A stretch of DNA of 63,575 nt, taken from positions 1 through 63,575 of the forward strand of contig JADLBH010000019.1 in assembly GCA_020847855.1 (NCBI GenBank). Direction: 5' to 3'. The DNA comes from Fimbriimonadaceae bacterium. GTDB taxonomy: Bacteria > Armatimonadota > Fimbriimonadia > Fimbriimonadales > Fimbriimonadaceae. The notes below the pieces were generated by a model. It was not told where the DNA came from. It worked only from the letters and a program-made list of their open reading frames with translations, and did no database searches. Shown here one piece after another: positions 1,285 through 41,931 of the stretch. The translations under genes were made by a program, and so were the position numbers. The stretch's first letter is position 1. The number at the start of each line of letters is the position of its first letter.

Positions 1285-1307
1285 GGGGGCGGGGGATTAC
1301 CCCCCCA
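1285..1307. terminator. G5-ATTA-C5 hairpin, possible bidirectional terminator
   Basis: GGGGG at 1291-1295 and CCCCC at 1300-1304 can pair across a four-base loop. The hairpin contains the stop codon of the fucosidase gene on the minus strand and follows the last CRISPR repeat on the plus strand. There is no U-tract, so a terminator role is only plausible. Confidence 0.3.
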
Positions 1308-4300
1308 CTGGAACCGGCAGCAAACGCAAAGATCGAAGGTTCATCACCGCGCCGCCCGGCTTCGTGACCGGGGTTACTTTCAAGACCGTCCGCCCCCCCT
1401 CACACGAGACCGTGCCCAGGGTCGCCGTCTCAAAGCGGTCCCACCCCCCGGAGGAAGGCACCTTCGCCCGCACCGACGAGCCTCCCACCGCAAACTCGAC
1501 CTCGGCGCCCTCGTTCCCGGGCGCGCACGCCCACTCCACCTCTACCGAATAGATCCCTTTCGCCAGGCCCTCCACCTCCAGGCGGAGAGTGGTCAGCTGC
1601 GAGGTCCAGTACCCGATGCACTTCTTGTCCGCCTCGTAACGCGCCGTCCCGTCCACCGACCATTCGTCCGCGGCGACCTGCAACACCCCGTCGGCTCCGG
1701 GTCGCAAGAGCACGGGCGTCACCTCCACCGGCCCCTCGTGCTCCACCACGATCACCCGCACCAGAGGATCGGCGGCCGAGATCGGCACCGGGATCTTCAG
1801 GCCCTCTGCGCCCCCGGAGTACATCAGGCTTCCGGGCTGCTCGCGCTGTGCCATAGGGTAGATGCGGGTCACCTTCGCCTTCACTCCGGGCAGGGTCACC
1901 TCCTCCAAGACCGGATCGAAGACGCACACAAAGAGCTTGCCCGGCTTGCTCGTTACCCGGCCCCAGGGCACCTGCTTCAATAGCGGCCCTGCAGAAGTGC
2001 CGTACACTGCATCGCCATAACGGTTCAGCCAGCGGCCCACCGTCGCCATGCGCTCCAGGCTTTCGGGGGGGATCTCTCCCGCAGCGGTCGGGCCCACGTT
2101 GAGGAGGTAGTTCCCCCCCTTGCTCGCACAGTCAACTAGGTTCTCGACGAGCGTCTTGGGCGACTTCCAGTTTGCATCGTTGGCATCGAAGCCCCAAGAG
2201 CCGTTCATGGTCATGCAAGACTCCCAGTCGGTCCCAGGGAAGCCCCGCGCAGGGATCTCCTGCTCTGGTGTGCCGAAGTCCCCCCCGTATCCGTCCTCGG
2301 TCATACCGGCCATGCCGTCCCGCCCTTTGTCAATCCGGTTGTTGATGATCAGGTTCGGCTTGAGCCCGCGAAGGTACTGCTCCAGTTCCAGGCCGAGGTC
2401 GTGGGTCCAAGTCGTGTCCCACTCGCCATCGAACCACAGAATCGCAGGGTCGTATCGGGTCACCAACTCATAGAGCTGCGCCTTCATGTAACCCACGTAG
2501 GCCGTGAAGTCTCCGGGGGGGCGCTTGTCGGCCCCGCGCTTCGGAAGATAGTCCTTGTGAGTCCAATCGAGGATCGAGTGATAGAGCCCGAACTGGATCC
2601 CTTCCTCGTCGCAGGCCTTCTTGAGCTCGCCGAGGATGTCGGTATGGTTCGGGGTGGTCTCGACGTCAAAGTTCGAGACCTTGCTGGGCCAAAGCGCAAA
2701 CCCTTCGTGGTGCTTCGAGGTGATCACGATATACTTCATCCCAGCTGCTTTCGCCGCGCGCACCCATGCGCGGGCGTCAAACTTCTCCGGGTTCCACTGT
2801 TTGGCAAGGGGTAGCCAGTCTTGGGGGGGGATGTCGGCGTGGTTGATGAGCCATTCGCTCGCACCAGGGTAGTCCTTGCCCTTCCAAACCCCGGCGGGAA
2901 TGGCATAAAGCCCCCAATGGATGAAGAGCCCAAAGCGGGCCTCCCGCCACCACTTCATGCGGGCGTCTTTCGCCTGGGCGTCCTGAATCATGGGCTCGTT
3001 CTGCGTGTACATCGTCTCTACCATTCGCAAATATGCCGCGATCGGCTCCATTCCCATCTTCGCCCGGCGCTCATCGAGTCTTTCGGGCGCCTCGGTAGGC
3101 TGAAGGCTCGCTTTGCCCTTGAGGATCGTGCACTGGGTGCCGAACCTTTGCGGCTTTCCTTGGGCGCGAAGCACCCGGTCCGTGAGGTAGGCGAAGTGCT
3201 GTGGGTCTGCCTCGCCCTCCTTCAGCGCGTCCTCCATCGCCTTCAGGTAGCGGGCTTGGAACTTCGGGTCGGCATCCGCGTGTTGGACGAGCAACCAGGC
3301 GTTCCCTTCTGCCCGACTACCGTACAGCGAGCGAATCGGATATCCGTATTCGTGCAAGAACTCGACCATATAAGCAGTAGAGGCGCGGTCCGCTTCCTCG
3401 ACCGCAGTTTGGAGCGACTTGTCGGGTGTTGAACCGGTGCTCGTCGCGTCGAGCAGCTTTCTGCGTGCGGCTTGGTCCGCCTCGACCAGGCTCTCGATCG
3501 CCGCCGCTCGCGCCTGGGGGGAAGCGTACATCTTGGCCTGCACGTCCGCATGGCTCTTGCGATCCCCAACGACCGTCACTTCGATCTTCGAGACCGGGAG
3601 CGGCGTGACTCGAACAAGCCTGCGGTTCCCGATCGTCGTGCCCGTGACCGGCGAGATCCGAGGATTCATGATCGGGAACGCATCCACGGGAGAAGTGAGC
3701 CAAGCCTGGAAGTGGGAGACCCGCTGGCCGCGCTCGATCGGCTCGCGGAGCTCGAGGATGTCCGCCACCTCGCCCGGTCTGGCGGGCCGCGAGAACGTCG
3801 CACGGTGCCAGGCACCGAACTGCCGCAACGCCCGGACGTCGTTCTCATGGATCAAGCCTCGGGTGTCGGGGGGGACGTTCAGGATCAAGTTCGCCCCCCT
3901 CCCCACCGACGCAAGATAAATCTCAATGAGTTGATCCAAGGTCTTCACCCTGCCGTTCTCGCTCGCCCGCCAGAACCAGCCGGGACGGATCGAGACGTCG
4001 CACTCGGCGGGGATCCAGTCCGGCCCGCCGCGAGTCCCAGTCTGGAGCAGGGCCGTGTCTGCGTGCCCCGGCGAGTGCTTCGAGTTGTCAATCGTGCTCC
4101 AGTTCGTCTCGGAGACCGTGCCCGCCTCGTTCCCGGCCCAGCGGACATCGGGCCCGGCGTCGCTGAAAATACAGGCGTTCGGCGCCAGCTCCCGCACGGT
4201 TGCGATATATCGCGGCCAGTCGTAGACCTGCCTCTTCCCGTTCGGCCCTTCGCCGTTCGCGCCGTCGAACCACACCTCGCTCACCTCGCCATAACCGGTA

Positions 4301-4770
4301 AGCACCTCGCGCAACATCCCCACGAAGACATCGTTGTACTCCGGGGTGCCGTAGGCCGGGTGGTTGCGGTCCCAGGGGCTGAGATAAACGCCGAACTTCA
4401 GCCCGAACTTCTTGCAAGAGCGGCTCAGGTCGCGCAGGACGTCGCCCTTGCCCTCCCTCCATTTCGACTGCGCCACCGTGTGTCTGGAAAGCTTCGAGGG
4501 CCAGAGGCAAAAGCCGTCGTGGTGCTTGGCGGTGACGACGACCATGCTCATCCCCGCGTCCCGGAAGGCGCGGCACCACTGGTCGGTGTCCATCGCGGTC
4601 GGGGCAAAGGAGCCGGGGTCCTCGGTCCCCTTCCCCCACTCCTCCCCGCTAAAGGTGTTCGGCCCGAAGTGCACAAAGGCATAGTGCCCCAGGCCGTGCC
4701 AGGCCGACTGCCGGGCAGACGGGACGGCCTGCCCGCTCATCGCGAGACCACAGACGAGCGCCGGAAGCAT
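1297..4770 (-). CDS. Exported tandem GH29 alpha-L-fucosidase with central DUF6624 domain
   Basis: 1157 residues. An N-terminal hydrophobic segment (about residues 1-19) suggests export. The first GH29 barrel (about 25-415) has AKHHDGFCLWPS (81-92) and the strand WFDG with candidate nucleophile Asp169. Residues about 420-600 match DUF6624: DQAARR, a WLLVQHAD motif (492-499) and FGTQ (543-546). A second GH29 domain (about 605-1000) has FGLFIHWG, SKHHEGFALWPS and WFDG with candidate nucleophile Asp781. The last 120 residues look like a carbohydrate-binding beta-sandwich. GH29 enzymes remove L-fucose from glycans; the protein is probably a secreted or periplasmic glycan-degrading enzyme. Normal GH29 enzymes have one barrel and 400-600 residues, so the double barrel with an inserted DUF6624 is unusual. 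The DUF6624 function is unknown. No other sugar-use genes adjoin it. Confidence 0.9.
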   Translation of the reverse strand: MLPALVCGLAMSGQAVPSARQSAWHGLGHYAFVHFGPNTFSGEEWGKGTEDPGSFAPTAMDTDQWCRAFRDAGMSMVVVTAKHHDGFCLWPSKLSRHTVAQSKWREGKGDVLRDLSRSCKKFGLKFGVYLSPWDRNHPAYGTPEYNDVFVGMLREVLTGYGEVSEVWFDGANGEGPNGKRQVYDWPRYIATVRELAPNACIFSDAGPDVRWAGNEAGTVSETNWSTIDNSKHSPGHADTALLQTGTRGGPDWIPAECDVSIRPGWFWRASENGRVKTLDQLIEIYLASVGRGANLILNVPPDTRGLIHENDVRALRQFGAWHRATFSRPARPGEVADILELREPIERGQRVSHFQAWLTSPVDAFPIMNPRISPVTGTTIGNRRLVRVTPLPVSKIEVTVVGDRKSHADVQAKMYASPQARAAAIESLVEADQAARRKLLDATSTGSTPDKSLQTAVEEADRASTAYMVEFLHEYGYPIRSLYGSRAEGNAWLLVQHADADPKFQARYLKAMEDALKEGEADPQHFAYLTDRVLRAQGKPQRFGTQCTILKGKASLQPTEAPERLDERRAKMGMEPIAAYLRMVETMYTQNEPMIQDAQAKDARMKWWREARFGLFIHWGLYAIPAGVWKGKDYPGASEWLINHADIPPQDWLPLAKQWNPEKFDARAWVRAAKAAGMKYIVITSKHHEGFALWPSKVSNFDVETTPNHTDILGELKKACDEEGIQFGLYHSILDWTHKDYLPKRGADKRPPGDFTAYVGYMKAQLYELVTRYDPAILWFDGEWDTTWTHDLGLELEQYLRGLKPNLIINNRIDKGRDGMAGMTEDGYGGDFGTPEQEIPARGFPGTDWESCMTMNGSWGFDANDANWKSPKTLVENLVDCASKGGNYLLNVGPTAAGEIPPESLERMATVGRWLNRYGDAVYGTSAGPLLKQVPWGRVTSKPGKLFVCVFDPVLEEVTLPGVKAKVTRIYPMAQREQPGSLMYSGGAEGLKIPVPISAADPLVRVIVVEHEGPVEVTPVLLRPGADGVLQVAADEWSVDGTARYEADKKCIGYWTSQLTTLRLEVEGLAKGIYSVEVEWACAPGNEGAEVEFAVGGSSVRAKVPSSGGWDRFETATLGTVSCEGGRTVLKVTPVTKPGGAVMNLRSLRLLPVPVGG

Positions 4771-11822: not shown

Positions 11823-12491
11823 TCATTCGTCCACCCGACAGAGCTCCGGATCGCGAACGTCCGTAAACAGGTGTGAGATGCAACCCTGCTGCCCTCCAAG
11901 CTCGCCCGGTGCGCCACGGTAGCGACGAAACGCGTAACGAGCCCTCTGGATCGAGCCGTCTCTGCGAACGCGCAGCATGGGGCCGGAATAGAGGAACACC
12001 AAGTTTGCACCGAGCGGCGTCTTGAGGTCGTGCTTGTCGCCAAGCACCCTCAGTGCCAGAATCCCAGGGTTACTGTCGAACGAACCGACAAGGTCATAGA
12101 ACCGCTCCGCCCCGAGCCACGTCCCGCGGAAGTGCGTCTCCCATGAGACGGGATACTCCGACTCGTAGCGGAAGAGTGTGGCACGGTTGAGGATCTCCCC
12201 ACCATAGCCGAGCGGAAGGTCGTCCGTCGGAGCCCGCAGGATCCGAGCATCGGTCAATTGCCCAGAGCGGACGATGTCGTCCATCGGGCCGATGTGCCAC
12301 CGACCGGCATCTTCGGAATAGGCCGCGATCGCCAGATAGAGCTGACGGCCGTCCGAGGTCGCGCTCGCCCGAAAGCCCTCGCGGCGTGCCTCGCGAGTGG
12401 CCCCGAACAGCAGTCCGGCAAGCAAGATCAGGATCGCAAGGCTCACGATGATCTCGATCAGGGTCAGTCCACGCAATCTCCGGTCCCTCAT
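11823..12491 (-). CDS. Pseudopilin-like protein, cassette 1
   Basis: 222 residues. The N-terminus RLRG-LTLIEIIVSLAILILL is a type IV prepilin signal: short basic leader, Gly before the cleavage site, Glu5 and a hydrophobic helix. The C-terminal region has a conserved pattern (FDSNPGILALRVLG, SGPMLRVRRDGSIQRARYAF) shared with the pseudopilin at 39387. Pseudopilins are processed by prepilin peptidase and assemble into short periplasmic pili of type II secretion or type IV pilus systems; no other such gene is nearby. The start overlaps the stop of the membrane-protein gene (ATGA), so the three genes of the cassette are one operon. It is the last gene. Confidence 0.85.
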   Translation of the reverse strand: MRDRRLRGLTLIEIIVSLAILILLAGLLFGATREARREGFRASATSDGRQLYLAIAAYSEDAGRWHIGPMDDIVRSGQLTDARILRAPTDDLPLGYGGEILNRATLFRYESEYPVSWETHFRGTWLGAERFYDLVGSFDSNPGILALRVLGDKHDLKTPLGANLVFLYSGPMLRVRRDGSIQRARYAFRRYRGAPGELGGQQGCISHLFTDVRDPELCRVDE

Positions 12492-12916
12492 TTCCGTGCC
12501 GCCTCCCACCACAAGGCAAGACCCTTGGCCAGGGAAGCGCAGATGATCGGCTGGCAAACGACGGTACCGATGAACTCCAGAGCATCCAATATCGCCTGCG
12601 TCTCGGCCGAGACTGAGATCGAGCGCGTGACAAAGCGAACGACGATCAACGCTATGGAAGCCACGACGAGCACCGGGCGCCACTTCCCTCCAATCCACAG
12701 GGCTGCGATCGGGAGGGCGATCACTGCGACATTGACGACTTGTGCGAGAAACACGTCGGCCGGGTTGATATTGAGCCGAATCCAGGGGCCATCGCCCCTG
12801 GCGAAGGCCAACCACACCCCGACCCAGACCGGTGCAAGGGCCACCGCCGACACGAGCACAGCGACGCTCCGAACCATCACCGCCTTCAGCCGGCTTTGGG
12901 TCAAAGAGGAGGCCAT
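12488..12916 (-). CDS. Small multi-spanning membrane protein, cassette 1
   Basis: 142 residues from ATG 12916, which overlaps the end of the Cys-rich gene by 16 nt. Three to four hydrophobic helices are visible (about residues 12-35, 52-76, 80-96 and 108-130). A longer frame begins at 13027 but would overlap the upstream gene extensively. No known family recognised. The position between the Cys-rich and pseudopilin genes is the same as that of the 40045 gene in cassette 2, although the two membrane proteins are only weakly similar. Confidence 0.7.
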   Translation of the reverse strand: MASSLTQSRLKAVMVRSVAVLVSAVALAPVWVGVWLAFARGDGPWIRLNINPADVFLAQVVNVAVIALPIAALWIGGKWRPVLVVASIALIVVRFVTRSISVSAETQAILDALEFIGTVVCQPIICASLAKGLALWWEAARK

Positions 12917-13377
12917 GGCACATCGCAGGACGGTTCGCCCTGGTTCCCAGTACACCCTGGGAACTGCGTGTTCGACGTGCGGCAACAATCGCCCGTTCGG
13001 TTCCAGTCCAAACACGCGACGCGCCACACCCAGCCCCCGCTACTGGGGCATTGATAGTAGATTCGGGTCTGTCGGTACACCCACTCGTTCTGCCACCAGA
13101 ATCCGCCACAGAGGTCGCCCGAGTCCTTCTTGCACGTGTCGCGGACGTCCCAGTGATGCTCTTCGCAACCCCCATCAACGCACGGATTGCTACCTGCAGG
13201 CATCTCTTGAGGATGGTACGTTCCATCGAGAACGGCGGTCAGATCCCGACGGAACTCTGCCGCCGAAACGGTCTTCGAGTTCCCACTGCGGCAGGTGGTG
13301 TGGCTCCTCACGGCCTCAAAGTGGCGAACCGCGTCGCCCTGGAAGAAGAGTGCATTCCCTGCCAAGAGGAGCGGCAT
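12901..13377 (-). CDS. Cys-rich protein, cassette 1
   Basis: 158 residues. The C-terminal 100 residues contain about 12 Cys in a pattern matched in the protein at 40448: SNPCVDGGC, DTC, LCGGF, then QCPSSGGWVWRVAC, DCCRT, GCTGNQGEPSC. The paired cysteines suggest a disulphide-bonded extracytoplasmic domain. The N-terminus (MPLLLAGNALFFQG) is only weakly hydrophobic and lacks the clear signal peptide of the paralogue, so the start may be wrong or the 5' end damaged; an in-frame TAG closes the frame just upstream. It is the first gene of the cassette. I do not recognise the family. Confidence 0.7.
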   Translation of the reverse strand: MPLLLAGNALFFQGDAVRHFEAVRSHTTCRSGNSKTVSAAEFRRDLTAVLDGTYHPQEMPAGSNPCVDGGCEEHHWDVRDTCKKDSGDLCGGFWWQNEWVYRQTRIYYQCPSSGGWVWRVACLDWNRTGDCCRTSNTQFPGCTGNQGEPSCDVPWPPL

Positions 13378-13609
13378 GGAAGCTGTACCTGCCTAAACTA
13401 GCCAACTCGCTAAGACGAAGCGAGCCGAGAGCCGAGAGCCGAGAGCCAATTTTCATGATCATCGTTCCTCCATGGAGAACTATACACGATCCCTACGTCG
13501 CTCTTCTTTCCGGTGCGCTTGCCCCACGGACTCTCGAACCTGAGACGACTGCAGCGGAGCGATCTCCTGAGGCTCCGCGTGCCTGCGTCCATGCGGTAAG
13601 CTCCCGTAC

Positions 13610-39386: not shown

Positions 39387-40058
39387 CTAGTTAGAACCAT
39401 CTGGCTCAAATCTACACGCTTCCTTGTTATCCGTAAACAGCGCAGCTGCACAGAAGGTCGTGGTCGAGCCATGGGAGTCCGGGACTCGGTCGAACTTCAT
39501 TTGCGCCCGCTCCACAGAGCCATCTTCTCTAGCACGGATCATCGGTCCGTCGAAACGAAACGACAAGAGGCGCATCTCGCAACTTGGGTCGCTGTACTCG
39601 GTTCGGTTCCCTAAGGTACGCAAAGCTATCAGTCCAGGGTTCGAATCGTACCGCATCACGAGGTCGTACATCTGGTCCACTTCGCCAGGGTGCGTCCCTC
39701 GAAACAGGTACTCCCAACTGCACGGATAAGAGACAAGGACGTCCCCTCCGGTACTGCATTCGAGCCAACGCCCGTAGTAGCCAGATCGGAACTCGTCACC
39801 TGGTTCTCGCAATATTTGAGTGTCTTGCAGGTGCCCAGCGTCGTGAAGCTGGTCCAACGTGCTGTTCGGTAGCTTGCCCTCGGCTTCTCGATACTGAAGT
39901 AGTGCCATAAGGGTCTGCCTCCCATGGATGGTCGCAGCACCTCGTCGCCCTTCTTTCCTTGCCTCGGAAAGAACAGGCATGAGCAGCGCAAGAATCAACG
40001 CAAGGATCACGAGAACGACCAGGATCTCAAGGAGCGAGAAGGCCCTATACCTGTGCAT
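39387..40058 (-). CDS. Pseudopilin-like protein, cassette 2
   Basis: 223 residues. Prepilin signal MHRYRA-FSLLEILVVLVILALILALL with Ala in place of the usual Gly before the cleavage site and Glu5 kept. The body (YDSNPGLIALRTLGN; FDGPMIRAREDGSVERAQ) is clearly homologous to the pseudopilin at 11823. The ATG overlaps the membrane-protein gene by 14 nt. Position and orientation within the cassette are the same as in cassette 1. Confidence 0.85.
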   Translation of the reverse strand: MHRYRAFSLLEILVVLVILALILALLMPVLSEARKEGRRGAATIHGRQTLMALLQYREAEGKLPNSTLDQLHDAGHLQDTQILREPGDEFRSGYYGRWLECSTGGDVLVSYPCSWEYLFRGTHPGEVDQMYDLVMRYDSNPGLIALRTLGNRTEYSDPSCEMRLLSFRFDGPMIRAREDGSVERAQMKFDRVPDSHGSTTTFCAAALFTDNKEACRFEPDGSN

Positions 40059-40437
40059 TCAGTCTCCTGCGGCCGCAAGCTGCCGCGACCGCGAGGGCCG
40101 AAACAACCGGTGCCCCAACGAACCCGAGTAGCAGTGTCAATTTCGGCTTCCATTCCGGCGCAGTTCCCGCGAATGGCTGCCTTGTCGCATAGTGTGTGCC
40201 CAAGAGCGCAACGGCCGCTACGCACGGGACCCACCACGAAACACCCTTGCGGGCGATCACAAGCCCAAGAGCCGCCCCTGCCAGGTTGAAAACACAACCG
40301 ATGCCAAAGTTGTACCAAAAGTAATGGAAGACCGTGCCTTCGAGCCCCGGCGGACTCGATGCGGCGATCCCGAGCACGTTCAGCATCGAACCCGACGCTG
40401 TGGCTGCCAGGACGATCAGACTCCTTCGAAGCACCAC
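40045..40437 (-). CDS. Small multi-spanning membrane protein, cassette 2
   Basis: 130 residues from GTG 40437, 10 nt after the stop of the Cys-rich gene; the frame is open to 40515 but that start would overlap the upstream gene. About four hydrophobic helices (SLIVLAATASGSMLNVLGIAA, FNLAGAALGLVIA, WWVPCVAAVALLG and VVSALAVAAACG). No family recognised. The equivalent gene in cassette 1 is 12488-12916. Confidence 0.65.
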   Translation of the reverse strand: MVLRRSLIVLAATASGSMLNVLGIAASSPPGLEGTVFHYFWYNFGIGCVFNLAGAALGLVIARKGVSWWVPCVAAVALLGTHYATRQPFAGTAPEWKPKLTLLLGFVGAPVVSALAVAAACGRRRLNAQV

Positions 40438-40447
40438 TGAGATTCGG

Positions 40448-40987
40448 CTACACTCCCGCGCCACACGGCAACTCGCCGTTGTTGCCGAAGCACCCAGTCG
40501 GTAATGGATCCCCATCGCGGCAGCAAACTTGCAACGGATGGAAGCTTTGAGGGCACCAGACGCGAAAGACGCTCACCCCTCCGGGCTTGGGGCAGGAGTC
40601 GCGCATGTAAGTTCGAGTCCACACCCGATCGTCCTGGCCGAACACGCCAGGACAAGAGTTGTCGATCACACACCAATCCTGGACCTGGTCGCCTAAGTAA
40701 GAGCAACCCGCTTCGACGTACGGATTGGACGAAGGCGAACTTGCAGGGCGCTCGCTACTCGACTGCATGCTGTTCTTGAGCGAGGCTCGAATGCTCGACT
40801 GTACGAGTTCCTTTTCCCGAATGGGATCCCGATTTTCACAGCCGGGCGAGCCCTTGGACGCAATGCGGTCTGAGACAAGGGCTGCAGCTCGAGCTTCTCG
40901 AGAGACAAGCACCGATCCTAGCCCAAGAGCAAGGGCCGAGGCACCTTTGAAGAATCCGAACTTCTGAGGCAACAGAGGGATGGCCAT
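40448..40987 (-). CDS. Exported Cys-rich protein, cassette 2
   Basis: 179 residues. Signal peptide GASALALGLGSVLVSREARA with an ARA-type cleavage site. The last 90 residues repeat the Cys pattern of the cassette 1 protein: SNPYVEAGC, DWC, SCPGVFGQ, RTYMRDSCPKPGGVSVFRVWC, CCRDG and GCFGNNGELPC. The shared CC, CP-x-x-GG, RV-x-C and GC-x-GN-x-GE motifs define the family. Probably a disulphide-rich domain at the cell surface or in the periplasm. Function unknown. Confidence 0.78.
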   Translation of the reverse strand: MAIPLLPQKFGFFKGASALALGLGSVLVSREARAAALVSDRIASKGSPGCENRDPIREKELVQSSIRASLKNSMQSSSERPASSPSSNPYVEAGCSYLGDQVQDWCVIDNSCPGVFGQDDRVWTRTYMRDSCPKPGGVSVFRVWCPQSFHPLQVCCRDGDPLPTGCFGNNGELPCGAGV

Positions 40988-40988
40988 G

Positions 40989-41002
40989 TGGCCATATGGC
41001 CA
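40989..41002. promoter_or_regulatory. 14-bp perfect palindrome TGGCCATATGGCCA
   Basis: The palindrome ends 2 nt before the ATG of the Cys-rich gene (read on the minus strand) and lies 60 bp after atpG. It is a candidate operator, or a chance result of repeated GGCC/CATATG motifs. Confidence 0.35.
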
Positions 41003-41061
41003 AGCATGAAATCAATGGCTTGGCTCGAACTCAGGACTTTAGGCCCAGTTCGACCGGATGG

Positions 41062-41931
41062 CTACGCCTTCAGCGCTTCCGCCCCGCCGACGATCTCGAG
41101 GATCTCCTTCGTGATCCCGGCTTGGCGAACCCGGTTGGCGGTGAGGGTCAGGCCACCGATCATCTTGCCCGCGTTGTCGGTCGCGCTCGTCATGGCGGTC
41201 ATCCGCGCCCCGTGCTCGCTGGCCGCCGCCTCGAGGAGAGCCTGGTAGACGACGGTCACGAGATACTTCGGCAGCAAGAGCCCGAGTAGCGCGGCGGGCT
41301 CCGGCTCGTACATGTACTCCGCCACCTTCGAGCCGCTTTCTTCCTCGTGGGAGCCTACTGGGGGCTCGATCGGTAGAAGCTGCACCACCTGCGGCACCTG
41401 GCGGATCGGCGAATAGAACTTCGAGTAGCAGAGGTAGATTGCGTCCACCTCGCCTTCCACGAACATCCGTTTCACCTCGTCCGCGATCTCGACCGCATGG
41501 GAGATGTCCCCGCCTGCCGTGGGAAGCGTGAACGACTTGGCCACCTCGTGCCCTCGCTTCGAAAAGAACTGCCAGCCTTTCTTCCCGACGCCTACGATCG
41601 CGTGCTCCTTGCCGGACTCTTTTAGGAAGTCCGCCGCCTTGCGGATCACGAGCGTGTTGTACGAGCCCGCGAGCCCCCGGTCCGCGGTCAGGAGCAGGAG
41701 ACCGATCTTCTTGATCTCGCGTCGGTCGAGCAAGGGGTGGGCGGGCAGCTCGCCGGCCTGGCCGACGTTCTCCATGAACTCCCGCATCTTCTCGGCGTAG
41801 GGCCTGGCCTCCTCGACCCTCATCTTCGCTCGGGTAAGGCGAGCCGCCGCCACCAGCTTCATCGCGCGCGTGATCTGCTGGATGTTCTTGGCGGAACGAA
41901 TCCGTTGCCGGATCTGCTTGAGGGTCGCCAT
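41062..41931 (-). CDS. atpG: ATP synthase subunit gamma
   Basis: 289 residues. Ends with the conserved gamma C-terminal helix (RVRQAGITKEILEIVGGAEAL) and begins ATLKQIRQRIRSAKNIQQITRAMK. It forms the central stalk of F1. It is the last gene of the ATP synthase operon here; the beta and epsilon genes do not follow. Cassette 2 starts 75 bp downstream on the same strand. Confidence 0.95.
   Translation of the reverse strand: MATLKQIRQRIRSAKNIQQITRAMKLVAAARLTRAKMRVEEARPYAEKMREFMENVGQAGELPAHPLLDRREIKKIGLLLLTADRGLAGSYNTLVIRKAADFLKESGKEHAIVGVGKKGWQFFSKRGHEVAKSFTLPTAGGDISHAVEIADEVKRMFVEGEVDAIYLCYSKFYSPIRQVPQVVQLLPIEPPVGSHEEESGSKVAEYMYEPEPAALLGLLLPKYLVTVVYQALLEAAASEHGARMTAMTSATDNAGKMIGGLTLTANRVRQAGITKEILEIVGGAEALKA

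What the first reader, a model, noticed from the sequence alone, without database searches (positions are those of the whole stretch)
40448..40987. Cys-rich family with a shared motif signature
Aligned by eye, the proteins at 12901 and 40448 share SNPxV-xx-GC, D-x-C, CP-xx-GG-xx-VxRV-x-C, CCR and GCxGNxGExxC, about ten cysteines in all, with little else conserved. That is the mark of a small disulphide-fixed domain, possibly a ligand-binding head. I cannot match it to a known domain.
Basis: partly seen in the sequence, partly recalled or inferred. Interest (0 to 1): 0.7.

Follow-up and report, generated by a model that had tools for sequence, protein, structure and literature searches.

The report
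Cys-rich domain in pilin gene cassettes
Two look-alike genes make a small, probably exported protein braced by disulphide bonds that matches no known family, and in this bacterial phylum such a gene is found beside a membrane-protein gene and a pilus-subunit gene, so it is probably an interchangeable working part of surface or secretion filaments.

Summary
Both genes lie on the minus strand: 40448-40987 (W40) and 12901-13377 (W12). Their similarity far exceeds chance (z = 12.9 even with cysteines held in place). They share a ~90-residue, ten-cysteine domain with no accepted Pfam, NCBIfam or PDB match. AlphaFold2 predicts a compact four-stranded beta domain (pLDDT 88, pTM 0.75) with no significant PDB fold match. 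Two cysteine pairs are lost together across 42 members (p about 1e-5 each), as disulphide partners would be.

Each gene opens a tightly packed, partly overlapping three-gene cassette: Cys-rich protein, small 3-4 helix membrane protein, type IV pilin-like protein. A profile found relatives in 25 of 291 genomes of the phylum (a lower bound). All 12 newly found places examined, in 10 genomes, carry the pilin and membrane genes. The Cys-rich protein and pilin vary together (Mantel r = 0.68). This genome has five such cassettes from four divergent clades.

Best explanation (inferred, about 50%): each cassette supplies an alternative pilin plus an exported disulphide-fixed partner for a shared type IV pilus/type II machine, most simply an adhesive tip or cargo. 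It is a new protein family in a new kind of pilin cassette; function is untested.

The parts
40448..40987 (-). W40: Cys-rich protein (179 aa); likely Sec signal peptide (about residues 1-35, MAIPLLPQKFGFFKGASALALGLGSVLVSREARAA)
   Evidence: signal peptide read from sequence; paralogue of W12
40457..40729 (-). W40 ten-position Cys domain (9 of 10 cysteines present: 95, 106, 112, 132, 145, 155, 156, 166, 175)
   Evidence: AF2 model pLDDT 81.8, pTM 0.67
40045..40515 (-). W40 cassette membrane protein, 3-4 predicted TM helices; true start uncertain (GTG 40464 overlaps the Cys-rich gene end; ATG 40386 further in)
   Evidence: no accepted Pfam or NCBIfam family
39387..40058 (-). W40 cassette type IV pilin-like protein (N-terminal RAFSLLEILVVL, C-terminal REDGSVERA), overlaps the membrane gene by 14 nt
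   Evidence: PF07963 E = 3.2e-6, above cut-off; pilin C-terminal profile
12901..13377 (-). W12: Cys-rich protein (158 aa); N-terminus/signal peptide uncertain
12919..13191 (-). W12 ten-Cys domain (C66, 71, 82, 90, 110, 122, 131, 132, 142, 151); co-loss suggests disulphides C71-C110 and C82-C132
   Evidence: AF2 pLDDT 88.4, pTM 0.75, four strands
12488..12916 (-). W12 cassette membrane protein (4 predicted TM), ATG 12916 overlaps the Cys-rich gene by 16 nt
   Evidence: no Pfam or NCBIfam family
11823..12491 (-). W12 cassette type IV pilin-like protein (RGLTLIEIIVSL; VRRDGSIQRA), ATGA overlap with the membrane gene
   Evidence: PF07963 E = 6.8e-5, above cut-off

Best explanation
The two proteins are members of a previously undescribed family of probably exported, disulphide-fixed beta domains. 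Each is the first gene of a three-gene cassette: Cys-rich protein (CR), small 3-4 helix membrane protein (TM), type IV pilin-like protein. Proposed mechanism: CR is exported by Sec and folded by disulphide formation; the pilin is processed and assembled by a shared type IV pilus / type II secretion machine; the TM protein sits in the inner membrane and helps the pilin or presents CR to it; CR is then displayed at the filament tip or pushed out by it, giving the filament one of several binding specificities. Shown: the domain family, the cassette, its spread, the linked variation of CR and pilin. Predicted: fold, disulphide pairs, signal peptides, TM helices. Inferred: export route, physical CR-pilin contact, adhesive or cargo role.
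For: Iterative profile search among 5435 six-frame ORFs picked only cassette Cys-rich ORFs. The 25-member profile searched over 291 genomes gave 38 places in 25 genomes; 12 places not used to build it (L246-L257), in 10 genomes, were opened, and all 12 have a pilin and a >=3 TM ORF on the same strand next to them. 38 cassettes have all three genes; CR and pilin C-terminal identities correlate across cassettes (Mantel r = 0.68, permutation p = 0.0005), less so TM (r = 0.40, 0.35). Genes overlap in W12 (16 nt; ATGA) and at TM/pilin in W40 (14 nt). Many CR proteins begin with a typical signal peptide. The genome has 11 matches to the pilus/T2SS ATPase family, 10 over the cut-off, and 40 pilin-motif matches. 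F. ginsengisoli has 79 PulG-type pseudopilins and its authors ascribe its pili to attachment (PMC4072686). In M. xanthus a type-I-signal-peptide protein, PilY1, is encoded with minor pilins in three clusters serving one machine and is part of the extended pilus, modelled as its tip complex (PMC7541494), a working precedent.
Against: No direct evidence that CR touches the pilin, reaches the surface or binds anything. The cassettes in this window are not next to machine genes that I identified. The Mantel correlation also reflects common descent of the whole cassette, not only contact. W12 may lack a working signal peptide. Some pilin+TM pairs have no recognisable CR, so CR is not required for that pair. 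The E-values of individual distant members are modest; several Cys-rich neighbours (for example L186, L199, L209, L215) fell below the inclusion threshold.
Confidence: 0.5

Rival explanations
1. CR is a secreted effector or bacteriocin-like toxin, the TM protein its immunity protein, and the pilin part of the export route.
For: Small, exported-looking, disulphide-rich, divergent between copies; the small membrane protein is the most divergent of the three (mean identity 17.5%), as immunity proteins often are.
Against: (sigma-)TM-pilin sets without CR exist (L179, L187, L190, L193), and in L183 and L181 only the N-terminal piece of CR survives while TM and pilin are intact, so TM travels with the pilin rather than with CR. 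TM divergence correlates only weakly with CR divergence (r = 0.40). No PADLOC match.
Confidence: 0.12
2. CR is a dedicated cargo (for example a carbohydrate-binding or enzyme-inhibiting protein) released through the type II secretion machine by a matching pseudopilin, with no filament adhesion.
For: Pilin C-terminal and CR variation go together; the W40 pilin resembles the GspG model, but below its cut-off (30.2 against 88.85 bits); T2SS-type ATPases present.
Against: Known T2SS cargos are not usually encoded one-to-one with a private pseudopilin and a membrane protein (own knowledge); nothing here separates cargo from tip.
Confidence: 0.22
3. CR is a periplasmic assembly or folding partner of the pilin (chaperone-like or redox), not displayed.
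For: Tight coupling of the genes; CR lies closest to the pilin in the CR-pilin-TM order (CR stop 14-120 nt before the pilin motif).
Against: No CXXC redox motif kept across members; a folding helper would be expected to be less variable than its client, but CR is about as variable as the pilin C-terminus (24.6% against 23.5% mean identity); some pilins lack CR.
Confidence: 0.1
4. The likeness is convergence among unrelated Cys-rich ORFs.
For: Low identity; Cys-rich spurious frames are common in GC-rich DNA.
Against: z = 12.9 with cysteines fixed; profile selectivity; context; paired cysteine loss.
Confidence: 0.02

Closest known systems
PilY1 / minor-pilin clusters of type IVa pili (Myxococcus xanthus clusters 1-3)
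   Same: A Sec-exported non-pilin protein encoded with minor pilins, in several alternative clusters serving one machine (PMC7541494)
   Different: CR is a ~90-residue domain with a predicted four-stranded disulphide fold and no Pfam match, so no PilY1 domain; one pilin rather than four; an extra TM protein
Verru_Chthon cassette (TIGR02596, TIGR02599)
   Same: Gene cassette built round pilin-like proteins; the W40 pilin N-terminus matches weakly
   Different: Below cut-off (16.2 of 70 bits; 13.5 of 256.5 bits), the match covering only the N-terminal motif. From memory, that cassette consists of several pilin-like proteins without a Cys-rich partner
Type II secretion pseudopilins (GspG, TIGR01710) and other N_methyl pilins
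   Same: Prepilin N-terminus (PF07963) and hydrophobic helix
   Different: C-terminal domain with a DPNPG..DGSV signature forms its own group (A5)
Beta-defensins
   Same: Weak profile resemblance over 31 residues (E = 1)
   Different: No significant match; different size and cysteine pattern; not seen with the 25-member profile

Membership tests
PilY1 (Neisseria_PilC domain) tip adhesins | Conserved PilY1 C-terminal domain | tested here: not met
   No accepted Pfam hit for W40, W12 or 25 members; the domain has ~90 residues
PilY1 (Neisseria_PilC domain) tip adhesins | Encoded with minor pilins | tested here: met
   Pilin adjacent in 12 of 12 newly opened places and in all 38 listed cassettes; whether these are minor pilins is not known
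PilY1 (Neisseria_PilC domain) tip adhesins | Located at the pilus tip | not testable with these tools
   Needs fractionation or microscopy
Verru_Chthon cassette | TIGR02596/TIGR02599 members above cut-off | tested here: not met
   16.2 of 70 bits and 13.5 of 256.5 bits
Type IV pilin-like proteins (third gene) | Prepilin cleavage/methylation motif PF07963 above cut-off | tested here: met
   26.9 and 22.7 bits against 21.2
GspG major pseudopilin (third gene) | TIGR01710 above cut-off | tested here: not met
   30.2 and 16.4 bits against 88.85
Known disulphide-rich folds in the PDB | Significant fold match | tested here: inconclusive
   Foldseek best E = 0.40; VIA-align best Z = 3.3, rmsd 2.9 over 48 residues
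Anti-phage defence proteins | PADLOC model match | tested here: not met
   0 hits

The most novel reading that the evidence does not exclude
A phylum-wide repertoire of interchangeable pilus heads: Armatimonadota equip one or a few pilus/T2SS machines with many private cassettes, each pairing a highly variable disulphide-fixed domain of a new fold with its own pilin and membrane partner, in some lineages preceded by a sigma-factor-like gene, so that cells choose what their filaments bind.
Probability: 0.3. Interest if true: 0.75.

Novelty: new variant of a known kind. Interest (0 to 1): 0.55.

Why it matters
Armatimonadota carry dozens of pilin-like genes without known function (79 PulG-type in F. 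ginsengisoli, PMC4072686; 40 pilin-motif matches here). The cassette gives a class of them a constant partner and a testable hypothesis, adds a disulphide domain family with no match in Pfam, NCBIfam or PDB, and offers an independent parallel to PilY1-type filament tips.

Tried and rejected
Known Cys-rich domain: Pfam, NCBIfam, PHROGs, PADLOC, PDB by profile, PDB by fold; nothing significant. Best rows (COMMD domains, HCMV UL130, affimers, beta-defensin 1) are chance-level and were not pursued. Viral contigs: none. Position after the ATP synthase operon as a functional clue: the W40 cassette follows atpG by about 74 nt, but none of the 29 relatives whose loci were held has a CR or pilin match within 1.5 kb after atpG; one further genome has a pilin there (L189), so it is at best a recurrent landing place. 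Toxin-immunity: weakened by CR-less TM-pilin pairs. Papers: no description of a Cys-rich/pilin cassette in Armatimonadota among those searched.

Full report
Observation. The two proteins are on the minus strand at 40448-40987 (W40, 179 aa) and 12901-13377 (W12, 158 aa). Compared alone they give E = 1e-11, 31% identity. Against 2000 shuffles the score is z = 16.6, and z = 12.9 when cysteines are held in place and the other residues shuffled. W40 lacks the first of the ten domain cysteines.

The family. The genome holds more copies: a direct search found the two, and a profile from five sequences (A2) found a third on contig 20. Relatives first appeared in genomes G007 and G037, whose records are titled Fimbriimonadaceae. 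Iterating the profile over 5435 six-frame ORFs from cassette loci converged on 27 ORFs, all Cys-rich frames next to a pilin, and no decoy (one gene is split into two ORFs). The 25-member alignment (A6) was searched in 291 genomes of the phylum: 38 places in 25 genomes at E <= 0.001, including other families of the phylum (f2, f5, f8, f32). That is a lower bound, because at most 17 candidates per genome were scored. In this genome five copies were found (two in the window, two on contig 20, one on contig 5).

Structure. AlphaFold2 on W12 with 25 sequences gives pLDDT 88.4 and pTM 0.75, five models alike (85.9-88.4), with four beta strands at 16-27, 42-56, 59-66 and 70-76 of the domain. On W40 with seven sequences: pLDDT 81.8, pTM 0.67, four strands in the same order. 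Foldseek against the PDB: no E <= 0.001, best 0.40; VIA-align best Z 3.2-3.3. These do not prove a new fold. Among 42 members, cysteines 2 and 5 are lost together (p = 3.9e-5) and cysteines 3 and 8 are lost together (p = 1.4e-5); in W12 these are C71-C110 and C82-C132. Members are related, so the p-values are optimistic, but no other pair approaches them. This is what disulphide partners do, and supports an oxidised, exported domain.

Context. Downstream of each gene on the same strand lie a small membrane protein without an accepted family and a protein with the prepilin motif PF07963 (26.9 and 22.7 bits, cut-off 21.2). In W12 the three ORFs overlap (membrane ATG 12916 against Cys-rich stop 12901; ATGA between membrane and pilin genes); in W40 the pilin overlaps the membrane gene by 14 nt. 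The Cys-rich profile, blind to pilins, found further places; 12 of these, in 10 genomes and not used to build the profile, were opened, and 12 of 12 have a pilin and a multi-TM ORF alongside. Of 40 cassettes processed, 38 were parsed with all three genes; in the other two my motif filter missed the pilin although the profile had found it. Two gene orders occur: CR-TM-pilin and CR-pilin-TM. In families f2 and f8 an ORF with a sigma-70 region 4 / helix-turn-helix match often lies just upstream (Sigma70_r4_2 up to 43 bits against 25.7; loci).

Evolution. Mean identity between cassettes is 24.6% (CR), 17.5% (TM) and 23.5% (pilin C-terminus). Identity matrices of CR and pilin correlate at r = 0.68, CR-TM 0.40, TM-pilin 0.35. 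The copies in this genome fall in four clades: W40+W12, contig 20a, contig 20b and contig 5; W40 and W12 are sisters (support 0.84) and the others group with cassettes of other genera. So the repertoire is old and patchily kept. TM-pilin pairs without CR, and loci where only the CR N-terminus survives, show CR is the dispensable part.

Machine. The genome has 40 matches to the pilin N-terminal motif, 37 over the cut-off, and 11 to the T2SS/pilus ATPase family, 10 over the cut-off. F. ginsengisoli was reported with 79 PulG-type genes, 65 with the methylation motif, PilB/C/D/Q/M and PilT, no motility, and pili thought to serve attachment (PMC4072686).

Interpretation. An exported non-pilin protein encoded with a private pilin, in several alternative copies, resembles in logic the PilY1/minor-pilin clusters of M. 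[quoted passage not shown] It is not a PilY1: it has no such domain and a different size. I therefore propose a filament head or matched cargo, at about 50% for a filament-associated role, 22% for pure cargo, 12% for toxin-immunity and 10% for an assembly helper.

Limits. Outside the phylum only curated family libraries, the PDB, one degenerate-pattern scan of GTDB genomes and one of viral contigs were searched. Signal peptides and TM helices were read by hydropathy, not by a dedicated predictor. Organism names behind most genomes are unknown.

Noticed in passing
window 13377-13460 (minus strand): The ATG with a good Shine-Dalgarno (about 13456) upstream of W12 is out of frame with the domain, a 7-bp unit (GGCTCTC) is repeated three times just after it, and a stop precedes ATG 13377 in the domain's frame; the W12 signal peptide may be decayed or switchable.
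   Followed up: partly
window 40987-41062: The W40 cassette starts about 74 nt after the atpG stop on the same strand; in genome G120 (L189) a cassette-type pilin also directly follows atpG, while 29 relatives checked show no CR or pilin match there.
   Followed up: partly
L108 3226-3369, 4821-4899, 6702-6894 (own genome, contig 20): Two tandem cassettes are bounded by direct repeats (144 nt at 90%, 79 nt at 94%) including a (CT)n tract and apparently the tail of the upstream gene, suggesting duplication or insertion by recombination.
   Followed up: partly
L182, L184, L198, L135 and relatives: Sigma-factor-like genes (Sigma70_r4_2 / helix-turn-helix matches) sit directly upstream of cassettes in families f2 and f8.
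   Followed up: partly
L120 3973-4320; L114 8692-9297; L110 4593-5057: Further short Cys-rich exported-looking proteins beside pilins in the same genome that the family profile does not reach.
   Followed up: no
G007 contig 1, 1748470-1762845: Three pilin cassettes within about 14 kb.
   Followed up: no
window 1300-4770: Large protein with a DUF6624 region joined to an alpha-L-fucosidase domain.
   Followed up: no
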